A stretch of 56,799 nucleotides of DNA from Natrialba hulunbeirensis JCM 10989 (GTDB taxonomy: Archaea; Halobacteriota; Halobacteria; Halobacteriales; Natrialbaceae): NCBI RefSeq assembly GCF_000337575.1, contig NZ_AOIM01000031.1, positions 426-57,224 on the forward strand, read 5' to 3'. Under the pieces are notes generated by a model, which saw nothing but the letters and a program-made list of their open reading frames with translations, did not search any database and was not told the DNA's origin. This document shows positions 12,494-40,945 of the stretch, in pieces. Both the position numbers and the translations under genes were made by a program. The first letter of the stretch is position 1. Every line of letters starts with the position of its first letter.

Positions 12494-12628
12494 AGCGGTT
12501 TCGGAGCCACGATCCGACCACAACCGGTTACGAGACGACAATCGTCACGGGACAACATCCGGCCACGGAACAGCCACGAGACGATCCGAAGGAAACGCCT
12601 TTCACCACCCGCTCCCCGTTTTCGCGTG

Positions 12629-14986
12629 ATGGAGGTTGCCGAGGTTCTCCCCGAGTTCGCAGACGCCTTCGCGTTCGAGGAGTTCAACCGCATGCAACGC
12701 GAGGCCCTGCCCGCGTTACTCGAGCGCGAGGAAAACGTCGTCGCGAGCGCACCCACCGCGTCGGGCAAGACCGCCCTCGCCGAACTCGCGATCTGCAAAA
12801 CCCTGGCCGACGGCGGCACCGCACTGTTTATCGCGCCGCTACGCGCCCTGACGAACGAAAAGGAGGACGACTGGGACCGCTTCGAGGAACTCGGCTATAC
12901 CGTGTACGTCGTCACCGGCGAGCGCGAGTTGAACTCGAGACGCGCCCGTCACGCGGACATCCTCGTGATGACCCCCGAGAAGCTCGACTCGGCGACGCGC
13001 AAGCACGATTCCCGACGCTATGACTTCGTGACGGATATCGACGTCTGCGTGATCGACGAGGTTCACCTGCTGGATGCCGACCGCAGAGGGTCCGTCCTCG
13101 AGGTCACGATTTCACGACTGCGCCGACTCTGTGAGCCGCGCGTCGTCGCGCTCTCGGCGACCATGCCGAACGTCACCGACGTGGCGGCGTGGCTCGACGC
13201 GCCCGACGAGACCACCTTCGAGTTCGGCGACGAGTACCGCCCGGTCGACCTGAACGCCGGCGTCAAGACCTACACGCACGGCGAGAATTCCTTCGCGGAC
13301 AAGTACCGCCGACTCTACCGCGCGATAGACCTCGCCGAACCGCACCTGAACGAGGACGGCCAGGCGCTCGTCTTCGTCTCCTCGCGTCAGGACACCGTCC
13401 GAGCGGCCGAGAAGGCCCGCGACGAGATCGCCGAACGCGACATTCCGATGGGGGCGCGCGGTGACTACGACTTTCACACCGAATCGAAGGAACTCGAGAA
13501 CGACACGCTCAGAAAGTCGGTCCTCGACGGCGTCGCCTTCCACCACGCTGGGCTCTCGAAGAACGACCGCGACCTCGTCGAGGAGTGGTTCAAGGAGGGC
13601 ATCGTCGAACTGCTGTTCTCGACCTCGACGCTCGCCTGGGGGGTGAACCTCCCCGCCCGCTGTGTCGTGATCCGGGACACGAAACTGCACGACCCACTCG
13701 AGGGCGAGGTCGATATGAGCCCGCTCGACGTGCTCCAGATGCTCGGCCGTGCGGGCCGGCCGGGGTACGACGACGTGGGTTACGGCTGGGTCGTCTGTGA
13801 CGGTTCGGAGGCGGACAAGTATCGTCGCCTGCTGCGAGACGGCAAAGAGATCGAGTCCCGACTCGCCGAGAGCCTGGAAACGCATCTGAACGCCGAAATC
13901 GCGATGGGGACCATCACCGATCTGGACGACGTGATGGACTGGCTCGAGACGACCTTCTACTACGTCCGCGGCCAGTCCCGTCCAGAGGACTACGACTTCC
14001 CGAACCTCAGACAGCGCGTGCGGGACTGTCTCGAGAAACTCGTCGACCGCGGCTTCGTCGAAACCGGCGACGACCTCTCGATCGAGGCAACGCCACGGGG
14101 CGTGCTGGCCTCGAAGTACTACCTGCGCCTCGAGACCGCGGCCGAGTTCGCCGGCCTCTGTGATCGCGCCGCGGAACATGCAGGTGCACTCGAGATGGAC
14201 GACATTCTGACGGCCGTCGCGACCGCCGAAGAGTTCGACTCCGTCTCGTCCCGGCAGGACGAACGAGACGCGATCGATGCGGTGCTCGTCGGCGCGGACA
14301 CGGGCGATCTGGAAGCGGGAGAGCGGAAGGTGCTCGCCATCCTGCGCAGTGCTGCGAGCGGGACGACACCAGGTGCGTTACGAAGCGACGCCTGGGTCAT
14401 CAAGCGAAACGCGACACGACTCATCTCCGCACTCGGCGCGTTCCTCGACCGGTTCGTCGGGCCGCATGCGGCGAATCTCTCCCGCCGAACCGAGGCGCGC
14501 ATCGAGAACGGCGTCGCAGAGGATGCGGTTGGCCTGACGGCCATCGACGGTGTCGCCGCGGGTCGTGCAAGCAAACTTGCGAAAGAAGGGCTTTCGACCC
14601 CCGGCGACGTTATCGACGCCGATATCGACGGCCTCGTGGCGGCCGGTCTCTCGGAGGGCATCGCCGAACGAGTTTACGAGGGTGCACAGTCACTCCCCTC
14701 GATCGAGTTCGACTGGGGTACCTTCCCCGACGCCATCGGCACCGGCGAAAACGAGGTCTGTGAAGTCACGATCCGAAACGTCGGCGAACCGGCACGGGCC
14801 GGCGTCCGGGTCACCGTCAATGGTGTCGAGATGACCAGCACCAGCACCTACCTCCGCGATGTCGAGACTGTCCCGGTTGGGGTGTTCGGCGCAGATGCGG
14901 ATGTACTCGAGTACACTGTGAGTGTCGCCTTCCCCGAGGAGCCGCTGGTTCCGGTGGAGGCGAGCCGTGTAGTGGACGTCCAGTAG
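12629..14986 (+). CDS. Ski2-like (Hel308-related) DEAD/DEAH-box helicase
   Basis: A 785-residue superfamily 2 helicase. Motif I is APTASGKT (about residue 40), motif II is DEVH, motif III is SAT, and motif VI reads QMLGRAGRPGYD. The C-terminal part has a degenerate winged-helix/ratchet region and a helix-hairpin-helix segment at about 630-690 (GLTAIDGVAAGRASKL), then a beta-rich tail near 700-785 that may be a Sec63/immunoglobulin-like domain. Hel308 unwinds stalled forks; this protein differs enough in its C-terminus that it may be a second Ski2 paralogue acting on DNA or RNA. The ATG at 12629 is preferred over the adjacent GTG at 12626. A box near 12593-12603 fits as promoter. Confidence 0.92.
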   Translation: MEVAEVLPEFADAFAFEEFNRMQREALPALLEREENVVASAPTASGKTALAELAICKTLADGGTALFIAPLRALTNEKEDDWDRFEELGYTVYVVTGERELNSRRARHADILVMTPEKLDSATRKHDSRRYDFVTDIDVCVIDEVHLLDADRRGSVLEVTISRLRRLCEPRVVALSATMPNVTDVAAWLDAPDETTFEFGDEYRPVDLNAGVKTYTHGENSFADKYRRLYRAIDLAEPHLNEDGQALVFVSSRQDTVRAAEKARDEIAERDIPMGARGDYDFHTESKELENDTLRKSVLDGVAFHHAGLSKNDRDLVEEWFKEGIVELLFSTSTLAWGVNLPARCVVIRDTKLHDPLEGEVDMSPLDVLQMLGRAGRPGYDDVGYGWVVCDGSEADKYRRLLRDGKEIESRLAESLETHLNAEIAMGTITDLDDVMDWLETTFYYVRGQSRPEDYDFPNLRQRVRDCLEKLVDRGFVETGDDLSIEATPRGVLASKYYLRLETAAEFAGLCDRAAEHAGALEMDDILTAVATAEEFDSVSSRQDERDAIDAVLVGADTGDLEAGERKVLAILRSAASGTTPGALRSDAWVIKRNATRLISALGAFLDRFVGPHAANLSRRTEARIENGVAEDAVGLTAIDGVAAGRASKLAKEGLSTPGDVIDADIDGLVAAGLSEGIAERVYEGAQSLPSIEFDWGTFPDAIGTGENEVCEVTIRNVGEPARAGVRVTVNGVEMTSTSTYLRDVETVPVGVFGADADVLEYTVSVAFPEEPLVPVEASRVVDVQ

Positions 14987-17258: not shown

Positions 17259-17990
17259 TTAGTCGACGAGGTCGAGGACGATCTCTCGCACCTCTGTCGG
17301 CGAGTCAGCAACCCAGTCGGCCGGCGAATAGTCGATGTCCCCGTGGGCGTCGATTCGGTAGGCGATCACGACCGTCTCGGCTCGGTGGGCCGCTTCGATG
17401 CCGTTCGCCGAGTCTTCGACGACGACACACTTCTCCGGCGGGACACCGATTTCGTCCGCGGCGTACTCGAACACGTCGGGTTCCGGCTTGCTCGCCGCGT
17501 CGATATCGTCGGCGCTCACGATTTCGTCGAACGAGTCCTCGAGGTCGAACCGGTCGGTGACCCAGCCGATCCACTCGTGGGGCGAGGAGGAGACGATTGC
17601 CGTTTCGATTCCTCGGGCGTCGAGTTCGGCGAGCAGGTCGTGGAGTCCCTCGAGGAGTTCGACCCGTTCCGTGTAGAGTTCCTCGGCTGCCTCGGTAAAC
17701 CGGTCGGTGTACTCCTCGCGCGAGATCGCCGTGCCGTACTCGTCGTCGAGGTAGTCGTAGATCTCGCGGTAGTTCATCCCGGTGACCTCTGCGACGTCGA
17801 TGTCCTCGTCCGGGACCGCGGCGGGAAGGATCTCCTCGCGCTCGAACTCGACCCAGTAGTCCTCGCTGTTGACGATAACGCCGTCCATGTCGAACAGGAC
17901 TGCGTCGGCGGTCTCGCTCTGGGTGTCGGTCTGTCGGTCAGTCGTCTCCGCTGTCTCCGACGCAGTGGTCACCGTTTCGTCCATGTACAT
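17259..17990 (-). CDS. HAD-superfamily phosphatase (beta-phosphoglucomutase-like)
   Basis: A 243-residue soluble hydrolase of the haloacid dehalogenase superfamily. Motif I is FDMDGVI with the nucleophilic Asp, motif II is VSSSPHEW, motif III is the Lys in SKPEPDVF, and motif IV is VVEDSANGIEAA. The helical cap between motifs I and II matches the phosphoglucomutase/phosphoglycolate phosphatase subgroup. About 35 Thr/Glu-rich residues precede motif I. The start at 17990 fits a TATA box at 18010-18017; the frame open to 18065 would run through that promoter and into the next gene. The substrate is unknown. Confidence 0.9.
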   Translation of the reverse strand: MYMDETVTTASETAETTDRQTDTQSETADAVLFDMDGVIVNSEDYWVEFEREEILPAAVPDEDIDVAEVTGMNYREIYDYLDDEYGTAISREEYTDRFTEAAEELYTERVELLEGLHDLLAELDARGIETAIVSSSPHEWIGWVTDRFDLEDSFDEIVSADDIDAASKPEPDVFEYAADEIGVPPEKCVVVEDSANGIEAAHRAETVVIAYRIDAHGDIDYSPADWVADSPTEVREIVLDLVD

Positions 17991-18009
17991 CCGGCTACCC
18001 GATCGACCA

Positions 18010-18017
18010 GTATAGCC
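18010..18017 (-). promoter_or_regulatory. TATA box of the HAD phosphatase gene
   Basis: On the minus strand GGCTATACTGG lies 20-27 bases before the ATG at 17990, giving a leaderless transcript and fixing the start. Confidence 0.5.
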
Positions 18018-18048
18018 GTTTGGCCAGCGAGCAGTGTGGATCCTCCAG

Positions 18049-18645
18049 TCAGCCGAAGACCTCACCGCGACGCTCGTGGATCATCTCCTCGGCAACCTCG
18101 TCCGCAATGGATTCATCAAACTCGCGTTCGAGCAACCACAGCCCGAGATCGATTCCCGACGTAACCCCACCCGCGGTGAGCACGTCGCCGTCGTCGACCA
18201 CTCGCTCGTCCACCACGTTTGCGGCCGTCTCCTCGAGATCGTCCACCGCAGCAGGGTGAGTCGTCGCGGGTCGGCCCTCGAGTAGCCCCGCCTCAGCAAG
18301 AATCATCGCGCCGGTGCAGACGGAGGCAACCGTCGCGCCGTTCGTGTAGCACTCGTCGACTGCGGCCGGCAGGTCGCCCTCGTCGACGACGAGCCGGACG
18401 CCACCCGTCGAGGTCGTCCAGCCGCCGCCGGGGACGAGCAGCAGGTCGGGGTCACCCAGCGTGCCGTCGGGTTCGACCCGCAGGTCGTGACTGGCGGTCA
18501 CGATGTCGGTTTCCTCGAGTGTCACGAGATTTGTGTCGATCGATGCGCCGGCTTGCGCGCCGTTCTCGAGTACCTCGTAGGGACCGATCGCGTCGAGTTC
18601 GTCGAAGCCATCGAAAAGGACGATTTCAGCGGTAATGTCGACCAT
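18049..18645 (-). CDS. DJ-1/PfpI (ThiJ-type) family protein
   Basis: A 198-residue class-I glutamine-amidotransferase-like protein. The nucleophile elbow ASVCTGAMILAEAGLL carries the conserved Cys, the family glutamate is in the FDGFDELDAIGPYEVL segment, and LLVPGGG is the usual strand. Relatives include isonitrile hydratases, glyoxalase-III-like enzymes and the sensor halves of GlxA regulators; here there is no AraC DNA-binding domain. The start at 18645 is chosen because upstream sequence is not family-like. It is divergent from the MazG-like gene, with a 166-base shared spacer. Confidence 0.88.
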   Translation of the reverse strand: MVDITAEIVLFDGFDELDAIGPYEVLENGAQAGASIDTNLVTLEETDIVTASHDLRVEPDGTLGDPDLLLVPGGGWTTSTGGVRLVVDEGDLPAAVDECYTNGATVASVCTGAMILAEAGLLEGRPATTHPAAVDDLEETAANVVDERVVDDGDVLTAGGVTSGIDLGLWLLEREFDESIADEVAEEMIHERRGEVFG

Positions 18646-19525: not shown

Positions 19526-19690
19526 TTAGTCCTGCACTGCTGACGCAACGGACTTTAATTCCTCTCGCGCTCCCATCCCTGGTTGCACCGACGTCCCGTG
19601 TCGGTCAACACCCGAACACAAATCGTGTCCGTGAGAGTCGGGGCCTCCACCAGCCCCCGATGCCGCCCGTCTCACCGTCCGAACGTGTGG
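19526..19690 (-). ncRNA. putative omega RNA overlapping the 3' end of tnpB
   Basis: TnpB proteins use a guide RNA derived from the right end of the element, usually overlapping the end of the gene. Here the last 55 codons encode a Gly/His/Ser-rich tail unlike the protein core, and contain a GGGGC-loop-GCCCC hairpin at 19640-19657. The guide would be read from sequence just beyond the element, about 19500-19520. This is inferred from family behaviour and not shown directly. Confidence 0.3.
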
Positions 19691-20863
19691 AAGGGTTTCG
19701 AGAGACGGCACATTTCCATACTGTTCGTCTAACCAATTCTGCACAACGCATACCGCAGCCTTCCGATCAGCGTGGTCTTGGAACCCACACCGTTTGCATT
19801 TGAATCGCTTCTTCTGTCGATTCGCTCGGTCTGTGTGCTGGCACTCCGTCCGTGGGCATCGCTGACTCGTGTATTCGGGGTCAACCACATCTGAAGGAAC
19901 CCCTTCCCACGCAGCTTTGTACGATACCATCTCTTGGAGAGCTGCGAACGGCAGTGAGTGTAGCCGACGGTTCATTCGCGTTCCGTAGTCGATGGACTCT
20001 CGCATGTCTTTGAGGTCTTCAAAGACGATCACAGGGTCGGTAAATTGCGAGATCCATTCAGCTACTTCCCGCGATACTTTGTGCAAGCGATCGTGAACGT
20101 AGTCGCGTTCTTCAGTCTTCACGACCGTTTCAAACGCAGTCTGCCCGGCTTTCTGCATCCGCTTGCGTTTGGTGAAAAACTCGTGGCGTTGCTCTTTCAC
20201 AGATGGATACTCGAACACCACAGAGTCTTTCACTGCACCGCTCCGACTCATCGCTGCGAGGGCGATGCAGTCCTCGTTCACATCCAAACCAACAATTGTG
20301 TCTGCATTGTGTTTGCTGGCGACTCTGTGAGTTTCGTGTGTGACTGTGACGTGGAGTCGCCACTCGTTGTGCTTGTGTACGACCTCAGCAGTTCCAACCC
20401 GCCACTCTTTGTCGTTGAATGCAGTTTGGAGTCGGTCGAAGTGATCAGGGCTCCCTCGAAGGTCGCCTTTGACGTGGGTGCCTCTTGTGGCAGTGATACG
20501 GAATCGAACAGTCCCATCCTCTTCAGGGAACAGGCGGTAGCCTTCTCCGTGGTTCATCACCATCGGGTACGACTCGTCGATGTATGGGTGGGGTCGCCCC
20601 CACCCATCATCTTTGTTGTCGTGATACGTTTCGATTTCACCGAGTGCCTTATCAACGATGAGTTGGGTGGTGTTGTTGACATGGTCGGCGTTATCCACGA
20701 CGACCGATTTAATCTCGTTCCAATTCCAACCTTGGCGGTCGAGGCGGTTGGTTTCGTTGCGGATGCGGCGGGCCTCAAGACAGCCGGTTTGCAGATCGTC
20801 TCCACTCCCCGTGTGGATGTCTAGTCCAAACGACAGTGATTGGGTGAGTTTGGACGACTGCAC
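19526..20863 (-). CDS. tnpB: TnpB RNA-guided endonuclease (OrfB of IS200/IS605)
   Basis: A 445-residue TnpB, ancestor-type of Cas12. The RuvC acidic residues appear as Asp194 (GLDVNED), Glu282 (VFEDLKD) and Asp366 (DHADRKAA). A zinc ribbon uses Cys336, Cys341, Cys356 and Cys359. The usual Asn after the last Asp (ADxNAA) is Lys367+1 here, a mild deviation. It starts with GTG. All catalytic residues are present, so it could be active as a nuclease that keeps the element in place, although it cannot move without a TnpA supplied elsewhere. The codon use is less G/C-biased than in its neighbours, consistent with transfer. Confidence 0.93.
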   Translation of the reverse strand: MQSSKLTQSLSFGLDIHTGSGDDLQTGCLEARRIRNETNRLDRQGWNWNEIKSVVVDNADHVNNTTQLIVDKALGEIETYHDNKDDGWGRPHPYIDESYPMVMNHGEGYRLFPEEDGTVRFRITATRGTHVKGDLRGSPDHFDRLQTAFNDKEWRVGTAEVVHKHNEWRLHVTVTHETHRVASKHNADTIVGLDVNEDCIALAAMSRSGAVKDSVVFEYPSVKEQRHEFFTKRKRMQKAGQTAFETVVKTEERDYVHDRLHKVSREVAEWISQFTDPVIVFEDLKDMRESIDYGTRMNRRLHSLPFAALQEMVSYKAAWEGVPSDVVDPEYTSQRCPRTECQHTDRANRQKKRFKCKRCGFQDHADRKAAVCVVQNWLDEQYGNVPSLETLPHVRTVRRAASGAGGGPDSHGHDLCSGVDRHGTSVQPGMGAREELKSVASAVQD

Positions 20864-23205: not shown

Positions 23206-24402
23206 TTACCGGAGCAGCGAATCGGCCATCCGGTTCGGGAACCCGGTGATGAGCTCTCGAATGCTCTGTTTCTCCTGGTCGGAGCGCAGTCGTGCACGCA
23301 GCCGCTGGCTGAAGAGCTCGACGACGAAGACGAGCACGAAGATGACGAACAGCGTCGCCATCATGTTCCCGAACATGAGTCGGCTCTCCTGGGTTGCAAC
23401 GACCGCACCGAGCCCGCCAGCGCCGATGACACCGACAGTCACGGCGGACCGGACGTTGATCTCGAGGATGTAAAGCGTCCAGGCGATGAACGACGTTCGC
23501 ACCTGGCTCAACATCCCGAAGAACACGACCTGTGGCTTGCTCGCACCCGTCGTTCGCATCGCCTCGATCGGCCCTTGCTCGAGTTCCTCGAGTTCCTCGA
23601 CGAACAGGCGACCGAGGTTCCCGATGGTGTTGAGCGCAATCGCGAGCGTCGCTGCGGCCGCACCGAGTCCGACCAGGGCGACGAAGATGAGTGCCCAGAC
23701 GATGGCCGGGATCGAGCGGATGAACGACATGACGGCGCGGAAGATCAGGTTGATCGGGAACGGCGTGACGCGTTCGGAGGCGAGCACGCTGAAGAGCAGT
23801 GCGAGCGGGAATCCGAGGATCGTTCCGACGACACCCATCGCGAGCGTCGTCCCGGCCTCTCCGAAGACGGTGAACATGCCGAGCTCCTCGAAGAAGAACG
23901 CGTAGTAGTCACCGAGATACGGCGGGAACTGGAAGATCAGTCGCCCAACCTCGGGATCGTAAATGAGCTCGTTGCTCATGATGAACTCCCAGTAGGAGCC
24001 GATGTCGAGGAACGGAATGCCCGCATCGAGACCCGGAATCTCGTTGGTCGTGACGGGGAAGTAATCCCCCATTCGATCGGCGAAGTGACTCCAAGTGAAC
24101 CGTGTTCGATCACTGAAGAATTCGGTCGCGACGAGCCCCTGGATTGTGACGAACGCGATCGACGCCGTGAGCACGACCCAGCCGATCGCCCGCTGCCGGC
24201 GCGTTTTCCGAATGTTTTCGAACTGTTCGTTTACACCCGCACTCGCCGATTCGAGTGGTTTCGATTCGTCGACGCCACCGTCCGGGTGCGGTTCGGGTTC
24301 AGTGTCGGGTTTTGGAGTGGGGTCAGTCTTTGGCTCCGTCTCCGACTCCGATCCTGGCCCCGACTCCGACTCCGACCGGTTCGTATCCTGCGAATCAGTC
24401 AC
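23206..24402 (-). CDS. phnE: PhnE-type ABC transporter permease
   Basis: A 398-residue permease of the phosphonate/phosphite/phosphate PhnE family. An acidic Ser/Pro/Glu-rich cytosolic extension of about 55 residues precedes the first helix. The transport domain has about six further helices, and the EAA-like loop that docks with the ATPase is seen as GPIEAMRTTGASKPQVVFFGML. It begins at the ATGA overlap with phnC, so the two are co-translated. Only one permease is present, which fits the homodimeric PhnE arrangement. A C-terminal helix run and basic tail end the protein. Confidence 0.92.
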   Translation of the reverse strand: MTDSQDTNRSESESGPGSESETEPKTDPTPKPDTEPEPHPDGGVDESKPLESASAGVNEQFENIRKTRRQRAIGWVVLTASIAFVTIQGLVATEFFSDRTRFTWSHFADRMGDYFPVTTNEIPGLDAGIPFLDIGSYWEFIMSNELIYDPEVGRLIFQFPPYLGDYYAFFFEELGMFTVFGEAGTTLAMGVVGTILGFPLALLFSVLASERVTPFPINLIFRAVMSFIRSIPAIVWALIFVALVGLGAAAATLAIALNTIGNLGRLFVEELEELEQGPIEAMRTTGASKPQVVFFGMLSQVRTSFIAWTLYILEINVRSAVTVGVIGAGGLGAVVATQESRLMFGNMMATLFVIFVLVFVVELFSQRLRARLRSDQEKQSIRELITGFPNRMADSLLR

Positions 24403-25208
24403 AGTGTCGCCCCCCGATTCGGGCTCGTCTGATTATCTGTCGATCCCCTGTTCGATTCGTTCTCCCCATGTGAAACAAACATTCCTTCAGTGTCGATATC
24501 GCCGTAGATCTCGTCAATGACGTCGAGAGTGAGGTCCTCACGATAGCCGTCGAAGACCTTCTCACCGTCGTGCAAGCCGATGAATCGCTGGCCGTACTTG
24601 CGAGCGATGTTGACCTGATGAAGACTGATAAACGTCGTCAGATCGCGTTCGTCCGCCGCGCGATTCAGGTACCCCATCACGTCCTGTGCACTGCCCGGGT
24701 CGAGACTCGCGACCGGTTCGTCAGCCAGTAACACTTCAGGTTCCTGTGTGAGTGCACGTGCGATACCGACGCGCTGTTGCTGTCCACCGCTCATCCGGCG
24801 AGACTTCTGTTCTGCCTCCTCGAGTAACCCAACCGTATCGAGTGCCTCGAGTGCCTGCTGTTTCTCGTCGTTGTCTTGCAACTGGAGGACGCTCTCGAGG
24901 AAGCTGCTCCGATTGATACCGCCGGAGAGTGCGTTCGAGTAGGCAGACATGTCGCCGATAATATTGTGCTGCTGGAAGATCATCGCGACCTCCGGCTTCG
25001 TACTCGTCATCGGTTCGCCGTCGATCAGCACCTGGCCGGCGGTTGGTTCCGTGAGTGCGGACATACATCGGAGAAGCGTGGATTTCCCCGATCCGGAGAC
25101 CCCGAGGATGATGACGAACTCACCTGCCGGAACCTCGAACGAGATATTATCGAGTGCGACAGTATCGCCGTATGTTTTTCTCAGATTGTCGACGACAATT
25201 TTGCTCAT
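24399..25208 (-). CDS. phnC: PhnC-type ABC transporter ATPase
   Basis: A 269-residue ABC ATPase. Walker A is GVSGSGKST, the Q-loop is FQQHNI, the signature is MSGGQQQR, Walker B is VLLADEP followed by the D-loop SLDP, and the switch His is in ISLHQ. The match to PhnC includes the LHQVNIARKYGQRFIGL segment. About 35 extra residues at the C-terminus look disordered. It follows phnD by 40 bases and overlaps phnE by four. It powers uptake of the PhnD ligand. Confidence 0.93.
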   Translation of the reverse strand: MSKIVVDNLRKTYGDTVALDNISFEVPAGEFVIILGVSGSGKSTLLRCMSALTEPTAGQVLIDGEPMTSTKPEVAMIFQQHNIIGDMSAYSNALSGGINRSSFLESVLQLQDNDEKQQALEALDTVGLLEEAEQKSRRMSGGQQQRVGIARALTQEPEVLLADEPVASLDPGSAQDVMGYLNRAADERDLTTFISLHQVNIARKYGQRFIGLHDGEKVFDGYREDLTLDVIDEIYGDIDTEGMFVSHGENESNRGSTDNQTSPNRGATL

Positions 25209-25248
25209 CGGTTGGTTACCCTTGGTTTGAAGTCGCGTTGTTTGAGGC

Positions 25249-26403
25249 TTACTCTATGTCGTCGAACGCAATGCCGAGGTCCTCGGCGAAGTCACGAACC
25301 GGCTCGTAGGCGTCGTGGTCGGCTTCGACGACACCGCTGAACCACAGCGTGTGGTCGTCGAAATCCTGCCAGTCTGCTTCCTGGTCCTCGTCCAGGTCGT
25401 AGTCGTCGGTGTCGAGCGTCCCCTCGTTGTACTCCTCGAGCATCTCGTCGGGCAGATCGAGACCGAGTTCGTCAGCCAGGTCGAAGGCGTCGTGCTGGAG
25501 CTCTTCGGCCTCGACGTTCTGCATGAACTCCTCGATGTCGTATCGGAGGTCGTCCTGCCAGCCAGCGTTGACGACGATCGGTGCGCGCGGGATCGCCGGC
25601 GAAACATCCAGCAGTCGCAGTTCGGGATCTCGCGTGCCGGCGATATCGACTTCCGGGGAAATCTCGTAGAGGTCCGGATACTCGTCCTCGATCTGTTCGA
25701 CCGGAACGTGTGGAACGGACGCGAACTCACCGGCACCGGCCGCTGCGATGGTGTCGTCGTTGATGAGTTCCTCGACGGCGAGGTCGTGCGAGACGCCGCT
25801 GCGCCACTCGAAGTCCTCGGCACCGCCGCCTTCGGCGACGTTTCCGATGTCGAGACCGGCTTCCTGAAGCATCCACAGCGGAGCCATACCACCCGAAACC
25901 GAGCCGACGTCAGCCATCGCGACTGCCTCTCCCTCGAGGTCCGACACCTCGGTGATCCCGCTGTCTGCCGTCGTCACGAGCGTCCCGAAGTAACGTTCGG
26001 CACCGAAGGCCTCCCGCATCCCGACGACATCGATTTCCTCGGGACCGAGCTGTGGCACTGCACCCGGGGACGTGTCAGCGAGAATCATGTCACCCTCACC
26101 TGCACGTTCGAGTTCCACCATCGTTCCGGAGTAACTCTGCGTTGGCAGTCCATCGATCTCGACATCGAACTCGTCTTCGATCAGCTCGAACAGCGGCTGA
26201 TACTGGACTTCGATGTCGATGGTATCCTCTGCTGGGTTCATTACCCAGGTGATGGTCTCTGTCTCACCGCCAGTAGAACCACCCTCTCCGTTCTCATCAT
26301 CACTTCTCCCCAGACACCCCGCCAGCGCGAGTGTCCCTACTGCACCAGTTGTAGTCAGGAAACGACGCCGTGAGTTGGTCGACATGCCGCTATCTTGGGA
26401 CAT
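25249..26403 (-). CDS. phnD: PhnD-type substrate-binding lipoprotein
   Basis: A 384-residue extracellular solute-binding protein. The Tat signal (SRRRFLTTTG) and lipobox (LAGC) are near residues 11-30, so the mature protein is lipid-anchored. The body follows the PhnD fold: WVMNPAEDT, the loop around LADTSPG and the SVSGGMAPLW segment that lines the ligand site. PhnD relatives bind phosphonates, phosphite or phosphate; the specificity of this one is not deducible. No C-P lyase, phosphonatase or phosphite dehydrogenase gene is adjacent. It is the first gene of the phnDCE operon. Confidence 0.92.
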   Translation of the reverse strand: MSQDSGMSTNSRRRFLTTTGAVGTLALAGCLGRSDDENGEGGSTGGETETITWVMNPAEDTIDIEVQYQPLFELIEDEFDVEIDGLPTQSYSGTMVELERAGEGDMILADTSPGAVPQLGPEEIDVVGMREAFGAERYFGTLVTTADSGITEVSDLEGEAVAMADVGSVSGGMAPLWMLQEAGLDIGNVAEGGGAEDFEWRSGVSHDLAVEELINDDTIAAAGAGEFASVPHVPVEQIEDEYPDLYEISPEVDIAGTRDPELRLLDVSPAIPRAPIVVNAGWQDDLRYDIEEFMQNVEAEELQHDAFDLADELGLDLPDEMLEEYNEGTLDTDDYDLDEDQEADWQDFDDHTLWFSGVVEADHDAYEPVRDFAEDLGIAFDDIE

Positions 26404-26610: not shown

Positions 26611-27519
26611 TCACTCGAGTCCGAGCTCACGCGCCCGCTGCAGATAGCAGTCTTTCGCGGCATCGGTCGCGGCGGCGAGATCAGCCTCGGGAGCATCCAC
26701 ACCGAGCCCATCGTGGTCGGACTCGAGTTCACCCGCCTCGTCGTGGAATCCCGGAAAGTGGATCGACAGTTCGTATCGGCCAACGTCAGTATCGGCGGCA
26801 TCGACCAGGCGCTCCTCCGCAGCAGTCACCTCGAGGTCGAACGCATTCTTGACAGCAGTGTGAAGCCGCGTTTCCGCGCGGGTGTAGCCCGGAAGCGTCT
26901 GCTTGACGGGCGCCGGAACGTCCGAGAGATAAGCTTCGCTGGCGTCGTGGAGCAGTCCCCAGCGCTGGGCCGACAGACTCCCGCCGCGGGCTTCGACCTC
27001 GCGGCTGACGTGGACCGCGTGGCGAGCGACGCTGTAGAACCGCTTTCCCTGCCCCGTGAAGCGACTGAGGTTCGAGAGCGCGTGTGCGATGTCCGCGAGG
27101 TTGATCGACTCCGGATCGGGATCGAGCGGCGTGATCGTCCCGCCAGACCGTCGGTTGATCACGCGGTGACCCCCGTCGAGCTCGGCCAGAACATCCTGCA
27201 GGCGGCCGACGACAGTTTCGAACTCGAGTCGAGTCGGCCGTACTCCCGTTTCCTGGCCGCCGTCACTTTCGAGTTCGTCACGCGGTGCCCCCTCGGACTG
27301 GCGGACGACAGCCTCGAGTCGAGACAGGTCGGACTCGAGTGTGTCGAACGCGTCGCGGACCGTTTGGGGGCCGACTTGCTGTTGCTGACCCTCGTTGGCT
27401 CGCTGTGTCTCGCTTGAGACAGCGCTCTCGTGTGACACGGAGCCGTCGCGTCCGTCTCGGTTGGCAACCGGCTCACCGTTGTTGTCGCTGCGGTCACCGA
27501 CACCCTCGTCGCTGGTCAT
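26611..27519 (-). CDS. HD-domain protein (YfbR-like 5'-nucleotidase type)
   Basis: A 302-residue protein. The first 115 residues are a disordered Glu/Gln/Asp-rich region. The HD domain at about 125-270 has ALSNLSRFTGQ, FYSVARHAVHVSR, and LLHDASEAYLSDVPAPVK, giving the H...HD...D metal site of YfbR/HDDC2-type enzymes that hydrolyse nucleoside monophosphates or related compounds. The start at 27519 (protein beginning MTSDEGVGD) is chosen because the longer frame overlaps the divergent gene at 27646 and is not protein-like. It is divergent from the zinc-cluster protein, with a 126-base spacer. Confidence 0.87.
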   Translation of the reverse strand: MTSDEGVGDRSDNNGEPVANRDGRDGSVSHESAVSSETQRANEGQQQQVGPQTVRDAFDTLESDLSRLEAVVRQSEGAPRDELESDGGQETGVRPTRLEFETVVGRLQDVLAELDGGHRVINRRSGGTITPLDPDPESINLADIAHALSNLSRFTGQGKRFYSVARHAVHVSREVEARGGSLSAQRWGLLHDASEAYLSDVPAPVKQTLPGYTRAETRLHTAVKNAFDLEVTAAEERLVDAADTDVGRYELSIHFPGFHDEAGELESDHDGLGVDAPEADLAAATDAAKDCYLQRARELGLE

Positions 27520-27615: not shown

Positions 27616-27625
27616 CTTTAAATAC
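27616..27625 (+). promoter_or_regulatory. TATA box of the NucS-N/zinc-cluster gene
   Basis: CTTTAAATAC, 21-30 bases before the ATG at 27646, typical for a leaderless haloarchaeal gene. Confidence 0.6.
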
Positions 27626-27645: not shown

Positions 27646-28422
27646 ATGATCGACGACGCGATTCGCGTGCTCGCCGGCGACTGCACCGTCATCGCCGAAG
27701 GCACCGACCGCTCGGAGTACCGCGGACGGGTGACGACGATCGTCAAGCCCGATAACACCGTTCTCGTCCACGATATCGACGGCTACCAGCCCGTCGCCTG
27801 GCTCACCCGCGCCGACAGCGTCTCCAGCGACCGCACGGACGACTTCACGCTCGTCGCGAAGAAAGACACCCAGACGCTCCGGATCGCGGCCCACGACCAG
27901 GACGGCTTCGCAAACTACCCCGCCTCCGCGGCCGGCACACCGGTCGGCACCTGTCCGGACGACGACTGTACCGGATCGCTCGTCCGCTCGAAGGGCGTTC
28001 GCTGTGTCGACTGTGGAACGCGCTACGGCGTGCCGGCCGACGCGACGATCAAGGACGACCAGTCCCACTGCGAGTGTGGCCTCCCGCGGATGCGCGTCGA
28101 GCGCGGCCTCGCGTTCGACGTCTGTCTCGATCGGAACTGCGAGTCGCTCGACGAGGCCGTCCGGGAGGCGTTCGACCGCGAGTGGGGCTGCCCCGAATCA
28201 GGCTGTGATGGCGATCTCCGGATTCTCCGCCGTGGCGGCCTCATCGCCGGCTGCGAGCACTACCCGGAGTGTGACACCGGATTTGCCATGCCCGGCGGCG
28301 TCGTCGACGGCGAGTGTGCCTGTGGCCTCCCGACGTTCGAAACGCGCAGCGGTTCACGGTGTCTCGACGCGACGTGCGAGGGTCACCAGCGCAGACAGGC
28401 CGAAGCTACGAGTGACGACTGA
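27646..28422 (+). CDS. NucS N-terminal-domain protein with four zinc clusters, no nuclease domain
   Basis: A 258-residue protein. Residues 1-95 resemble the N-terminal DNA-binding half of the mismatch endonuclease NucS/EndoMS (DUF91): AGDCTVIAEG, GRVTTIVKPDNTVLVH and the following PVAW, which matches the family's IVIIKPDGT-LVH...PVNW. The nuclease half of NucS is missing. Instead there are four Cys4 clusters at residues 103/108/120/123, 142/144/160/165, 182/187/203/209 and 224/226/239/244, of the topoisomerase-I C4 kind. It may bind branched or damaged DNA, but that is inference. It starts with a good TATA box and is followed by endA after 175 bases. Confidence 0.85.
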   Translation: MIDDAIRVLAGDCTVIAEGTDRSEYRGRVTTIVKPDNTVLVHDIDGYQPVAWLTRADSVSSDRTDDFTLVAKKDTQTLRIAAHDQDGFANYPASAAGTPVGTCPDDDCTGSLVRSKGVRCVDCGTRYGVPADATIKDDQSHCECGLPRMRVERGLAFDVCLDRNCESLDEAVREAFDREWGCPESGCDGDLRILRRGGLIAGCEHYPECDTGFAMPGGVVDGECACGLPTFETRSGSRCLDATCEGHQRRQAEATSDD

Positions 28423-28597: not shown

Positions 28598-29755
28598 ATG
28601 TCACTGGAGGGGCAATTCGACGACGACGCAGGCGTCGTCCACGTTGGCCACGACGCACGCCAGCGCTACCACGACTCGCGCGGCTACGGCTACCCACTCG
28701 AGGGCAACGAAATCGCGCTCGCACCGGTCGAAGCCGCACACCTGCTCTATCGCGGCGACCTCGACGCAGTCGTCGAGACGTCGACCGGCGACCGCCTCGA
28801 CTTTCAGGCCTTCGTCAGCCGCGAACCCGGCACCGACTTCGGCGTTCGATTCCTCGTCTACGCAGATCTGCGCGAACGCGGCTTCTACCTCTCGCCCGCG
28901 AGAGAGCCCTGGATCGACGAGTCACTTCTGGACGCAGAACACGAACGAATCGACTTCGCCGTCTTCCCCCGCGGCAAGGGCCCCGGCGACGGCGAACTCG
29001 AGTACGCGCTACGCGTCATCGGCGAGCGAACCGACATCCCCGCAGCTGAACTCGCCGACAGCGTCCTCGCCGTCGTCGACGAGGAGAGCGAAATTACGTA
29101 CTTCGACGTGAACGCGAGAAACCCAAGCGGCGAGACGGAGACCGACCTCCCGACCGGCGTCGAGGCGGCGCTACTCGAGGACCGGGTGGTTCTCTGGGAG
29201 CCGCCGATCGACCTCTACGAGGATGCGTTCTACGGCCAGCCACTCGAGGGCCGCGAGTACGAGCGGCCGACGCTGCAGTGTTCGCTGCTCGAGGCGGCCT
29301 ACCTCGCCGAGCGGGGTGTGATCGACCTCGCGGTCGAGACGGTCGTCGAGCGCGGTCGCGAGGTCGAAGGGGAACGGTTTGACCGGCGACTGCGGGTGTA
29401 TACGGAGCTTCGCGAGCGTGAGATTGTGCCCAAGACGGGCTACAAGTTCGGGGCGGACTTCCGGACGTACGCAAACGTCGAGTCCGTCTCGGAGTTGAGT
29501 CACTCCGAGTTGCTGGTGCGTGTCCATCCCGCTGGTTACATCTTCGAGCCGCGCGATCTGGCACTCGACGTGCGGTTGGCCCACGGCGTCCGGAAGACGA
29601 TGGTGTTCGCGCTCGTCGGCGAGTCGGACGAGGACGGGGAAGAGGCGACTGGTCTTACCGACGACAGCGACGATAGCAACGACAGCAACGACACCGACGC
29701 GAGCGACGACACTACCGACATCGAGTGGTGGTCACTCGAACGACTAACGCCCTGA
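28598..29755 (+). CDS. endA: tRNA-splicing endonuclease (fused two-repeat form)
   Basis: A 385-residue enzyme that cuts introns from pre-tRNAs at bulge-helix-bulge sites. It contains two endonuclease repeats; the N-terminal copy is degenerate and the C-terminal copy carries the catalytic triad: Tyr in GYKFG (near 281), His in SHSELLVRVHP (near 302) and Lys in GVRKTMVF (near 333). This fused form is known from haloarchaea and other euryarchaea. A disordered Asp/Ser tail of about 35 residues ends in a Trp-containing WWSLERL segment. The ATG at 28598 is chosen because upstream sequence is repeats and a TATA-like box lies at 28568-28576. Confidence 0.94.
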   Translation: MSLEGQFDDDAGVVHVGHDARQRYHDSRGYGYPLEGNEIALAPVEAAHLLYRGDLDAVVETSTGDRLDFQAFVSREPGTDFGVRFLVYADLRERGFYLSPAREPWIDESLLDAEHERIDFAVFPRGKGPGDGELEYALRVIGERTDIPAAELADSVLAVVDEESEITYFDVNARNPSGETETDLPTGVEAALLEDRVVLWEPPIDLYEDAFYGQPLEGREYERPTLQCSLLEAAYLAERGVIDLAVETVVERGREVEGERFDRRLRVYTELREREIVPKTGYKFGADFRTYANVESVSELSHSELLVRVHPAGYIFEPRDLALDVRLAHGVRKTMVFALVGESDEDGEEATGLTDDSDDSNDSNDTDASDDTTDIEWWSLERLTP

Positions 29756-29845: not shown

Positions 29846-31015
29846 ATGCAACTCGAGGTGATCGGGATCGGTGGCGCGGGCTGTCGGATCGCCGACGCGA
29901 TCCACACTACGGAGTCGACGGCCCAGCCGTTTCTCTGCGATACGTTCGCGTTCGATACGGACACGCTCAGTCTGGAAGCACTCGAGTCGATTCCGGACGA
30001 GCACCGGCATCGATACGGGGCGGAGATCGAGAACGGACTCAACGGCAATCTCCAGCGCGGCGAAACCATCGGTGAGGAGCACGTCGACGAACTGAGTCGA
30101 CAGCTCGACGCGGGCACACCCTCGGCTGCGGACGCCTTCCTCGTCGCGGTCGGCCTCGGGGGTGCGACCGGCGGCGGAGCCGCACCCGCACTCGTCGCAA
30201 ACCTCCAGACGCTGTACGACGCGCCGGTGTACGTCCTCGCGACGCTGCCAGCGGACCGCGAACGTCTGCCCGACGGCGATCCGTCGGTTCCGAGTGACGA
30301 TACACGCGCGTCCGGTGCGGACGCCGACGGGGCGACGCGGCCGATGGCCGCACAGAACGCGGTACGGACGCTCTCGCGGCTCGACGGCCTCGCGAACGCA
30401 ATCTTCTGTTTCGACACCGAGCCGTGGCTTCGCACCGGCGAGGACCTGATCGACGGCCGCGACCGACTTAACCGTGAGATCGCCACGCGCACCGGCGCTT
30501 TCTTCGGCTCGACGGCACAGGCTGCAGACAGCACACCGAACGCTGAGAGCATCGTCGACGCGAACGACGTGGCGCGCATCCTCGGCGACGAAACCGCGCT
30601 CGTCTCGCTGGGCTACGGCGCACAGCAGGTCGACGCCGACGACTCGGGGCCGCTGCTCGGAATCGACCTCGGAATCGGTCCCTTCAGTTCGGCCGACGAA
30701 ATCGAAACCAGCGCCGCCGTCAGCGCCGTCGAAACGGCCGTCGCGAAGGCGATCCAGGGGAAGCTGACACTCGAGTGCGACCGACCGAACGTCGACCGGG
30801 CGCTGTTGATCGTCGGCGGCCCGCCGGCGTGGCTCAACCAGACGGCCGTCGCCGATGGACGGCGGCGACTCGAGTCAGTCACGGAGTCGACGGAGACACT
30901 TGGTGGGGACGCGCCGCGGCCGGGAAGCGACGAGGTGTTCGCGCTGGCGGTGCTTGCGGGGGTCGAACCGGTCGCGCGCATCGAGGCACTGCGAGAGGCA
31001 AGCGAGACGCACTGA
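29846..31015 (+). CDS. divergent FtsZ/tubulin-superfamily protein
   Basis: A 389-residue protein. The nucleotide-binding T1 loop reads GIGGAGCR at residues 7-14, and the tubulin signature reads GLGGATGGGAAP at about 103-114, a deviation from the canonical GGGTG[ST]G. The segment near residue 236 (VDANDVARIL) keeps the two aspartates of the T7 loop that drive GTP hydrolysis in FtsZ, although the Asn of NxDxxD appears to be lost. It is therefore neither a standard FtsZ1/FtsZ2 nor obviously CetZ. A role in cell shape or division is inference. The start lacks a clear TATA box at standard spacing. Confidence 0.8.
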   Translation: MQLEVIGIGGAGCRIADAIHTTESTAQPFLCDTFAFDTDTLSLEALESIPDEHRHRYGAEIENGLNGNLQRGETIGEEHVDELSRQLDAGTPSAADAFLVAVGLGGATGGGAAPALVANLQTLYDAPVYVLATLPADRERLPDGDPSVPSDDTRASGADADGATRPMAAQNAVRTLSRLDGLANAIFCFDTEPWLRTGEDLIDGRDRLNREIATRTGAFFGSTAQAADSTPNAESIVDANDVARILGDETALVSLGYGAQQVDADDSGPLLGIDLGIGPFSSADEIETSAAVSAVETAVAKAIQGKLTLECDRPNVDRALLIVGGPPAWLNQTAVADGRRRLESVTESTETLGGDAPRPGSDEVFALAVLAGVEPVARIEALREASETH

Positions 31016-39141: not shown

Positions 39142-39225
39142 CGGTTGGCGTTGTCGACGCGGTCACATGAAGATACTGGCAGCCGAACAGACGCTACTCG
39201 GCGGACAGGGTGGAGCAGAAGCGAA

Positions 39226-39233
39226 GGCTTTTG
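39226..39233 (+). promoter_or_regulatory. TATA-like box of trpS
   Basis: GGCTTTTGC, about 27-34 bases before the ATG at 39260. It argues for the 39260 start over the in-frame ATG at 39167. Confidence 0.45.
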
Positions 39234-39259
39234 CGCGCCGGCGCGCCAAAACGGTGATA

Positions 39260-40945
39260 ATGACCGGAGACGACCCACGCGAGGAGCGGGGACCGGAGTT
39301 CGATGTCGATTCCGATTCCGATCTCGAGGACGAAGGCGAAGGCAAAGACAAACGCGCAGGCCTTCGAACCGATGGTGGCGCAGCAGGCGCAGACAGCGAG
39401 GGGGCGCAGACCCCTCGAGCAGACGGCGGTGCCGTCGATGACGTCGCGCTCGACCCCTGGGGCTCCTCGACCGTCTCCGACTACCGCAAACTGTTCGAGG
39501 AGTTCGGCATCGAGGAGTTCGACGACGTGCTGCCGGAGGTTCCTCACCCACACTACCTGATGCGCCGGGGCGTCATCTTCGGCCAGCGCGACTACCGACC
39601 CGTCGTCGAAGCACTCCAGAACGACGAGCCCGCGGCCGTCCTCTCCGGGTTCATGCCGACCGGCGACCCGCACATCGGCCACAAACTCGTCTTCGACGAG
39701 ATCATCTGGCACCAGCAACAGGGTGCAGACGCCTACGCGCTGATCGCCGATCTGGAGGCGAACTCGGCCCGGGGAATGTCCTGGGAGGAGATCGACGAAC
39801 ACGCCCGCAGCTACCTGCTCTCCCTGCTCGCGCTCGGCTTCGACCCCGAAGACGGCGACCTCTACCGCCAGTCGACCAACCGCGACGTGCAGGACCTCGC
39901 GTTCGATCTCGGCGCAGAAGCCAACTTCTCCGAGTTCCAGGCGATCTACGGCTTCGACGGCGAAACCGATGCCTCGCACATGCAGTCGGTCGTCACCCAG
40001 ATGGCGGACATCCTCTACCCGCAACTCGAGGAGCCCAAGCCGACCGTGATCCCCGTCGGTCCCGACCAGGACCCCCACGTCCGGCTGGCGCGAGACCTCG
40101 CCGAGCGGATGCGCTTCTTCAAGGTCTCGACGGCCTATGCCAGCTTCGAACTCGACGACGAGGAGCGCGACCTCGTCGCCCGGTTCCACGAGGAACTCGA
40201 TCCCGCCGACTTCGACGACGACCAGCTCCGGTGTGTCCACGTCGCCGAGACGCTGGAGGAGACGCCGCTCGCCGAACTCGCAATCGACGCTGAGGTCCTC
40301 GATTCCGTCCTGACGAAGCTGAACGAGGCCGGGATGGAACCGCTTCGCCCGCGTATTCGCTTCTCCGACCGGCGGGCGACCGAGGACGCCTTCGACGCCC
40401 TCATCGACGCCATCGAAGGCGAGAAGCGCGTCTACGAGAATCACATCGACGCCTTCGAGATCGACCGCGCCGACGCTGAGGAACTGGCACGCGAGATCGA
40501 AGTCGACAACGGCGGGTATGGCTTCCAGCCGCCGTCGTCGATCTACCACCGCTTCATGACCGGCCTGACGGGCGGCAAGATGTCTTCTTCGGTGCCGGCC
40601 TCGCACATCTCGCTGCTCGACGATCCCGAAGACGGCTACAACAAGGTCAAGTCGGCGACAACGGGCGGGCGCGAAACCGCCGGGGAACAGCGCGAGAAGG
40701 GCGGCAAAGCCGACGAGTGTCCGGTCTACGAGCTGTACGCCTACCTGCTTGCCGGCGACGACGACGAGTTTGCAAAGCGCGTCTACGACGAGTGTGTCGG
40801 CGGCGAGCGCCTCTGTGGTGACTGCAAGGAGCAGGCCGCCCAGCTGATGAAAGAATTCCTCGCGGAGCATCAGGAGAAACGCGCCGAAGTCGAGGAGCTA
40901 CTCGAGCAGGCGGACATCGAACTCGAGTCGCCGCGGCGTCGATAG
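39260..40945 (+). CDS. trpS: tryptophan--tRNA ligase
   Basis: A 561-residue class I synthetase that charges tRNA-Trp. An acidic disordered extension of about 60 residues precedes the catalytic core. The HIGH-like motif is PTGDPHIGHK at about 132-141, and the KMSSS loop is GGKMSSS at about 437-443, which matches the archaeal/eukaryotic TrpRS type. The tRNA-binding helical domain follows. The later part has RLCGDCKEQAA and ends with a Glu-rich coil. The start is set by the TATA-like box at 39226-39233 and avoids overlap with the divergent moxR region. Confidence 0.95.
   Translation: MTGDDPREERGPEFDVDSDSDLEDEGEGKDKRAGLRTDGGAAGADSEGAQTPRADGGAVDDVALDPWGSSTVSDYRKLFEEFGIEEFDDVLPEVPHPHYLMRRGVIFGQRDYRPVVEALQNDEPAAVLSGFMPTGDPHIGHKLVFDEIIWHQQQGADAYALIADLEANSARGMSWEEIDEHARSYLLSLLALGFDPEDGDLYRQSTNRDVQDLAFDLGAEANFSEFQAIYGFDGETDASHMQSVVTQMADILYPQLEEPKPTVIPVGPDQDPHVRLARDLAERMRFFKVSTAYASFELDDEERDLVARFHEELDPADFDDDQLRCVHVAETLEETPLAELAIDAEVLDSVLTKLNEAGMEPLRPRIRFSDRRATEDAFDALIDAIEGEKRVYENHIDAFEIDRADAEELAREIEVDNGGYGFQPPSSIYHRFMTGLTGGKMSSSVPASHISLLDDPEDGYNKVKSATTGGRETAGEQREKGGKADECPVYELYAYLLAGDDDEFAKRVYDECVGGERLCGDCKEQAAQLMKEFLAEHQEKRAEVEELLEQADIELESPRRR

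What the first reader, a model, noticed from the sequence alone, without database searches (positions are those of the whole stretch)
27646..28422. NucS N-terminal domain joined to four zinc clusters without a nuclease domain
Residues 1-95 carry the NucS/EndoMS DNA-binding pattern (IVKPDNTVLVH...PVAW), but the catalytic half is replaced by sixteen cysteines in four C4 clusters like topoisomerase I tails. It could be a structure-specific DNA binder, a competitor or a cofactor of NucS. It sits next to endA and has its own promoter.
Basis: partly seen in the sequence, partly recalled or inferred. Interest (0 to 1): 0.6.

Follow-up and report, generated by a model that had tools for sequence, protein, structure and literature searches.

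The report
Detached DNA/RNA-binding module of a helicase
Nearly every salt-loving archaeon carries a small protein that joins the DNA-reading half of a mismatch-repair enzyme to four zinc clusters; gene fusions and gene order show it is most likely the separate targeting subunit of a helicase related to eukaryotic Brr2 and ASCC3, not a partner of the mismatch enzyme.

Summary
Window 27646-28422 (+) encodes a 258-aa protein with a NucS_N PH-like domain (Pfam above cut-off; Foldseek best match EndoMS) and sixteen cysteines in four C4 clusters. There is no nuclease domain. It is conserved in 142 of 145 sampled haloarchaeal genomes.

The NucS interpretation does not hold. Nine genomes without any canonical NucS keep the protein, and the NucS base-pocket residues are mostly replaced. 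The evidence points to another partner, a Ski2-type helicase also in this window (12626-14986, +). In other lineages of the phylum this helicase carries either a NucS_N domain (plus HRDC) or the same four-zinc tail at its C-terminus, where the haloarchaeal helicase stops. In haloarchaea the 258-aa gene never occurs without the helicase (142/142). The helicase lies upstream on the same strand within 1 kb in 52 genomes and within 3 kb in 81.

The helicase is not Hel308. Its model matches one cassette of eukaryotic Brr2/ASCC3 over its full length.

Best reading: a detached nucleic-acid-binding targeting subunit of a Brr2/ASCC3-like helicase, at a locus also holding endA and trpS. Partnership is well supported. 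Direct binding, substrate (DNA or RNA) and pathway are inferred. I found no description in the papers I could search.

The parts
27646..28422 (+). NucS_N + four-zinc-cluster protein, 258 aa (the finding)
   Evidence: ORF; Pfam NucS_N; 53 orthologues; 142/145 genomes
27646..27930 (+). NucS_N PH-like domain, residues 1-95; invariant core TVLVHDxDGYQPVAWxTR
27952..28014 (+). C4 cluster 1 (C103, C108, C120, C123); lost in 4 of 77 orthologues
28069..28140 (+). C4 cluster 2 (C142, C144, C160, C165); invariant
28189..28272 (+). C4 cluster 3 (C182, C187, C203, C209); invariant, topoisomerase-I-like
28315..28377 (+). C4 cluster 4 (C224, C226, C239, C244); invariant
27617..27624 (+). TATA-like box (TTTAAATA) at -29, leaderless-type spacing
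   Evidence: similar box in 42 of 46 Natrialbaceae loci, 3 of 30 other loci
12626..14986 (+). Partner: Ski2-type helicase, 786 aa, single Brr2/ASCC3-like cassette ending in an Ig/FN3-like domain
28601..29755 (+). endA, tRNA intron endonuclease; downstream neighbour in most relatives
   Evidence: (PF01974 E 2.1e-31)
39188..40945 (+). trpS, tryptophanyl-tRNA synthetase (start approximate); follows endA in relatives
   Evidence: (PF00579 E 7.3e-46)
17259..18065 (-). HAD-family phosphatase; a HAD gene lies between helicase and the zinc protein in many haloarchaea

Best explanation
The protein is the detached C-terminal accessory module of a Ski2-family helicase whose gene is at 12626-14986 in the same window. 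Shown: two lineages outside the haloarchaea carry helicases of this family with either the NucS_N domain or the four-zinc tail as C-terminal extension; the haloarchaeal helicase ends just before that point; the two genes always co-occur and are often adjacent and co-directional. Inferred: the protein binds the helicase (most likely through its Ig/FN3-like C-terminal domain, where the extensions attach) and supplies nucleic-acid contacts. In this picture the PH-like NucS_N domain reads a junction or an unpaired base with its invariant Trp and GYQPVAW loop, the zinc clusters hold single strand, and the helicase uses ATP to unwind or strip the bound structure.
For: Fusion of the zinc tail to the helicase in genus g59 (978-979 aa; profile match E 1e-38 to 1e-41; 38% identity over 150 aa). 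Fusion of NucS_N plus HRDC to the same helicase in f18 genomes (Pfam NucS_N E 7.8e-7 and 2.1e-7; BLASTP E 2e-11; hhalign E 9e-17). Haloarchaeal helicase 46% identical to the g59 fusion protein over residues 6-739 only. Co-occurrence: 142 of 142 genomes with the protein have the helicase, and one genome lacks both. Linkage: helicase upstream on the same strand at <=100 bp in 18, <=1 kb in 52, <=3 kb in 81, <=30 kb in 113 genomes; the <=1 kb cases come from at least six families. In several genomes the fused f18 protein aligns through the helicase stop codon into the downstream gene. In g59 the fused gene also sits by endA and trpS, so the locus is the same.
Against: No single protein carrying helicase, NucS_N and the zinc tail together was seen, so each half is linked by a different lineage. 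Two genomes (G002, G129) have the helicase without the protein, so it is not strictly required. In the window itself the genes are 12.7 kb apart and the protein has its own TATA-like box. endA linkage is at least as tight as helicase linkage. No interaction or nucleic-acid binding has been shown. These are acidic haloarchaeal proteins, so a nucleic-acid-binding face cannot be read from charge.
Confidence: 0.68

Rival explanations
1. RNA-processing factor for EndA: the protein binds pre-tRNA or pre-rRNA bulge-helix-bulge sites or introns and works with the neighbouring tRNA splicing endonuclease, with or without the helicase.
For: endA lies downstream on the same strand in 75 of 80 loci, mostly as next gene, and trpS usually follows. 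The block is also next to the fused helicase in g59. The helicase resembles RNA helicases Brr2, Slh1 and ASCC3.
Against: endA and trpS are housekeeping genes and are not fused to the protein. In the f18 genome L103 the NucS_N-helicase fusion has no endA within the stretch fetched. NucS_N and HRDC are known mainly from DNA enzymes. endA has its own TATA-like sequence in the window.
Confidence: 0.15
2. NucS cofactor or competitor: it occupies mismatched or branched DNA or heterodimerises with NucS.
For: Shared N-terminal domain; canonical NucS present in this genome.
Against: Nine of 11 genomes lacking NucS keep the protein. One genome (G129) has NucS without it. Pocket residues other than W77 are replaced. 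No linkage to nucS in this genome.
Confidence: 0.05
3. Stand-alone single-strand DNA binding or topoisomerase-like repair factor that happens to lie in a conserved gene block; the fusions reflect shuffling of promiscuous modules.
For: The last two zinc clusters weakly match topoisomerase I tails. Zinc ribbons are promiscuous. A NucS_N plus HRDC protein without helicase exists.
Against: Matches to other large proteins of topoisomerase size cover only the last part at about 1e-7, while the helicase fusion covers all four clusters at 1e-37 or better. Two different fusions to the same helicase at the same point, plus perfect co-occurrence, are hard to explain by shuffling.
Confidence: 0.12

Closest known systems
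EndoMS/NucS mismatch endonuclease (Pfam NucS_N + NucS_C)
   Same: N-terminal PH-like domain, invariant Cys (C37 in Tko), KPD..LVH core and the base-stacking Trp (W77 = W52 here)
   Different: No PD-(D/E)XK domain; N76 to Ala, R72 to Tyr, R44 not kept, Y41 to Ala/Thr in Natrialbaceae and Phe elsewhere; four zinc clusters instead
Brr2, ASCC3 and Slh1 (eukaryotic Ski2-like helicases) for the partner helicase
   Same: RecA1, RecA2, winged helix, Sec63-type unit with HhH and Ig/FN3-like domain; Foldseek E 3e-44 over the full length
   Different: One cassette, not two; NucS_N/zinc module attached in other lineages; substrate unknown
Archaeal Hel308
   Same: Ski2-like core fold and family
   Different: The genome has a separate canonical Hel308 (L118) that scores 514 bits to Hel308 structures; the partner scores only 225, 245.7 vs an NCBIfam cut-off of 1200, and has an extra C-terminal Ig/FN3-like domain
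C4 zinc tails of archaeal DNA topoisomerase I
   Same: Spacing of cluster 3 and part of cluster 4
   Different: No topoisomerase domains; similarity below the Pfam cut-off; four clusters arranged as two similar pairs
ASC-1/TRIP4 (Rqt4), zinc-containing subunit bound to ASCC3/Slh1 (ASCC3-ASC1 structure 8alz appears; zinc finger from own knowledge)
   Same: Small zinc protein working beside a Brr2/ASCC3-type helicase
   Different: No homology shown; analogy only

Membership tests
EndoMS/NucS endonuclease | N-terminal NucS_N PH-like domain | tested here: met
EndoMS/NucS endonuclease | C-terminal PD-(D/E)XK nuclease domain (PF01939) | tested here: not met
   no match; the only NucS_C in the genome is on another contig
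EndoMS/NucS endonuclease | Flipped-base pocket (Y41, R44, R72, N76, W77) | tested here: not met
   only W77 invariant; N76 is Ala and R72 is Tyr in 77/77 (residues from PMC6829318)
EndoMS/NucS endonuclease | PCNA-stimulated cleavage of mismatched DNA | not testable with these tools
   needs biochemistry
DNA topoisomerase IA | Toprim and topoisomerase catalytic domains | tested here: not met
DNA topoisomerase IA | C4 zinc ribbons of the tail | tested here: inconclusive
   13.5 bits, cut-off 32; NCBIfam topoisomerase I E 7.3e-4
Accessory module of a Ski2-like helicase | Fused to the helicase in other lineages | tested here: met
   (each half in a different lineage)
Accessory module of a Ski2-like helicase | Co-occurs with and is linked to the helicase gene | tested here: met
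   142/142 co-occurrence; 81 within 3 kb, same strand, downstream of the helicase
Accessory module of a Ski2-like helicase | Physical complex and effect on activity | not testable with these tools
   needs pull-down and helicase assays
Partner helicase as Hel308 | Hel308 equivalog score | tested here: not met
   245.7 bits vs cut-off 1200; separate Hel308 in the genome
Partner helicase as Brr2/ASCC3 type | Cassette with Sec63 unit ending in an Ig/FN3-like domain | tested here: met
   Pfam Sec63 9.7e-14 and SNRNP200_wHTH 1.4e-9; Foldseek top 50 all Brr2 or ASCC3, full length
Partner helicase as Brr2/ASCC3 type | Two tandem cassettes | tested here: not met
   786 aa, one cassette
Partner helicase as ASH-Ski2 | Orthology to Thermococcales ASH-Ski2 | not tested
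   paper not held; no reference sequence at hand

The most novel reading that the evidence does not exclude
Haloarchaea run a two-piece, single-cassette relative of Brr2/ASCC3 that remodels structured RNA or collided ribosomes (the tRNA-splicing neighbourhood being a clue), with a mismatch-enzyme domain re-used as its RNA reader; it would be an archaeal relative of the eukaryotic spliceosome and ribosome-rescue helicases.
Probability: 0.15. Interest if true: 0.88.

Novelty: new variant of a known kind. Interest (0 to 1): 0.62.

Why it matters
A protein that would pass as a NucS fragment or a topoisomerase zinc-finger protein turns out to be almost universal in haloarchaea and tied to a helicase of the Brr2/ASCC3 architecture, distinct from Hel308. 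It gives a testable pair (knockouts and pull-downs are routine in Haloferax volcanii). It shows that the mismatch-reading domain of NucS has been re-used as a helicase module. It also points to a single-cassette archaeal relative of Brr2/ASCC3 whose substrate would bear on how those eukaryotic machines arose.

Tried and rejected
NucS partnership: rejected by genomes that keep the protein without NucS. Topoisomerase-I fragment: matches cover only the last clusters, below cut-off. Hidden nuclease: no Pfam or NCBIfam hit. Divergent upstream gene (26611-27519) as partner: no Pfam hit and not conserved in most relatives. Phosphonate-type transporter and CetZ gene as partners: lineage-specific. Equating the helicase with Hel308: rejected with the genome's own Hel308 as control. 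The summed PDB E-values for Brr2/ASCC3 are inflated because two cassettes each match; per cassette the lead over Hel308 is only 8-35 bits, so the claim rests on architecture and the structure match. The ASH-Ski2 paper (PMC7144898) was not held, so whether the partner belongs to ASH-Ski2 stays open. Paper searches for the protein or the combination found nothing on it.

Full report
What is there. Window 27646-28422 (+) encodes 258 aa. Residues 5-84 pass the Pfam cut-off for NucS_N (26.4 vs 23.9 bits, E 6.7e-6). The family profile (A1, 53 orthologues) finds EndoMS and NucS in the PDB, and the predicted structure (pLDDT 85.5) has EndoMS as best Foldseek match, E 6.2e-7. Residues 99-245 hold sixteen cysteines in four C4 clusters; clusters 2-4 are invariant in 77 sequences, cluster 1 is lost in four. 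The most conserved stretch is in the N domain: TVLVHDxDGYQPVAWxTR. No nuclease domain was found. The closest named relative of the window protein is in Natrialba sp. SSL1 (98%).

Distribution. In 145 haloarchaeal genomes spread over 58 genera, 142 carry the protein (full length, or in a few cases matched in two pieces); G002, G021 and G129 do not. NucS_C is absent from 11 of the 145 (G001, G002, G007, G021, G043, G044, G068, G071, G073, G093, G101), nine of which carry the protein. So its conserved role does not depend on NucS. The EndoMS pocket residues named in PMC6829318 (Y41, R44, R72, N76, W77) map to A/F17, variable 20, Y47, A51 and W52. Only the Trp is kept in all; an aromatic at the Tyr position is usual outside Natrialbaceae. 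A G/T-specific flipped-base reader is therefore unlikely, while stacking on one unpaired base remains possible (inference).

Fusions outside haloarchaea. A phylum-wide search with the profile (393 genomes) gave two unexpected sets. In genus g59 (seven genomes) profile positions of about 97-243, i.e. all four zinc clusters, match the C-terminus of large proteins (about 980 aa) at E 1e-37 to 1e-41. In f18 genomes the N-terminal half matches proteins of 997 and 1013 aa. These are helicases: DEAD, Helicase_C, winged helix, Sec63-type domain and HhH, then either the zinc tail (L100, L102) or NucS_N plus HRDC (L103, L104). The zinc tail of L102 is 38% identical to the window protein over 150 aa (E 6e-31). 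The NucS_N domains are alike at BLASTP E 2e-11 and hhalign E 9e-17. The genome's own NucS gives 34 bits over 49 residues. In g59 the fused gene is next to endA and trpS, the same block that follows the haloarchaeal gene, so the locus is shared.

The partner in haloarchaea. Searching with the g59 helicase in the window's genome finds its orthologue in the window itself, 12626-14986 (+), 786 aa, 46% identical over residues 6-739 and ending where the fused extensions begin. It is present in 144 of 145 genomes. Combining: all 142 genomes with the protein have the helicase and one genome (G021) lacks both. The helicase is upstream on the same strand with a gap of at most 100 bp in 18 genomes, 1 kb in 52, 3 kb in 81, 30 kb in 113. 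The cases within 1 kb come from families f2, f3, f4, f7, f8 and f9, so this is not one lineage. In several genomes (e.g. G010, G035, G067, G075) the fused f18 protein aligns through the helicase stop into the downstream NucS_N. Elsewhere a HAD phosphatase on the opposite strand separates the two. In the window the gap is 12.7 kb, filled by other genes including a phosphonate-type transporter and a TnpB-like gene.

What the helicase is. It is not Hel308: 245.7 bits against an NCBIfam cut-off of 1200, and the genome has a separate Hel308 (L118) that scores 514 bits to Hel308 structures, where the partner scores 225. Per cassette the partner scores 245-260 bits to ASCC3, 243-248 to Slh1 and 233-246 to Brr2, a modest lead; whole-protein E-values are inflated by double cassettes. 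Its model (pLDDT 81.4) matches Brr2 over its full length including the C-terminal beta-sandwich (Foldseek E 3.2e-44, 830 columns); the top 50 are Brr2 and ASCC3 entries only. It is thus a single-cassette helicase of Brr2/ASCC3 architecture. Whether it equals the ASH-Ski2 group could not be tested (paper not held).

Mechanism proposed. Shown: domain content, co-occurrence, linkage, fusions, loss of NucS-specific residues. Inferred: the protein docks on the Ig/FN3-like end of the helicase, because both extension types attach there; the NucS_N domain and zinc clusters hold the substrate; the helicase unwinds or strips it. DNA or RNA is open. For DNA: NucS_N, HRDC and topoisomerase-like zinc are DNA modules, and XPB with a DUF790 (Bax1-type, own knowledge) gene neighbours the fused gene in g59. 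For RNA: endA and trpS adjacency and the Brr2/Slh1/ASCC3 resemblance. I do not choose a pathway.

Promoter. A TATA-like box at -29 is seen in the window and in 42 of 46 Natrialbaceae loci but in only 3 of 30 others, in line with separate transcription where the helicase has drifted away and operon-like spacing elsewhere (inference).

Limits. The genome sample is one genome per species and unnamed. Only the phylum of the window was searched for fusions. No protein with all three parts was found, so whether the ancestral state was fused or separate is not resolved. The count of endA neighbours (75 of 80, on the same strand within the flank) was made on named contigs with 6 kb flanks, some truncated. 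Co-occurrence counts genomes, not independent events.

Noticed in passing
window 29846-31015 (+): A CetZ-family tubulin-like gene (CetZ_C E 1.2e-33) sits between endA and trpS; at this place it was found only in Natrialbaceae relatives.
   Followed up: partly
window 19526-20863 (-): TnpB-like protein (Cas12f1-like_TNB), probably part of an insertion sequence in the stretch that separates helicase and zinc protein.
   Followed up: no
window 23206-26403 (-): Phosphonate-type ABC transporter genes lie between the helicase and the zinc protein; a similar cassette lies nearby in either orientation in several relatives.
   Followed up: no
L001:997-1839 (+), the genome's canonical NucS, and L001:2540-3292 (-): The canonical nucS gene lies close to a gene whose translation looks like the end of MutS, so the two mismatch-repair systems may be neighbours here.
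   Followed up: no
L105:3880-4689 (+): A 269-aa protein with NucS_N plus HRDC and no helicase: another stand-alone form of the module, in genus g66.
   Followed up: partly
L100:4635-7548 (-): XPB helicase and DUF790 (Bax1-type) genes directly beside the fused helicase-zinc gene in g59.
   Followed up: partly
L072, L075, L076, L068 (Halobellus, Halomarina halobia): The cysteines of zinc cluster 1 are replaced while the region is kept, so that cluster is dispensable in these genera.
   Followed up: no
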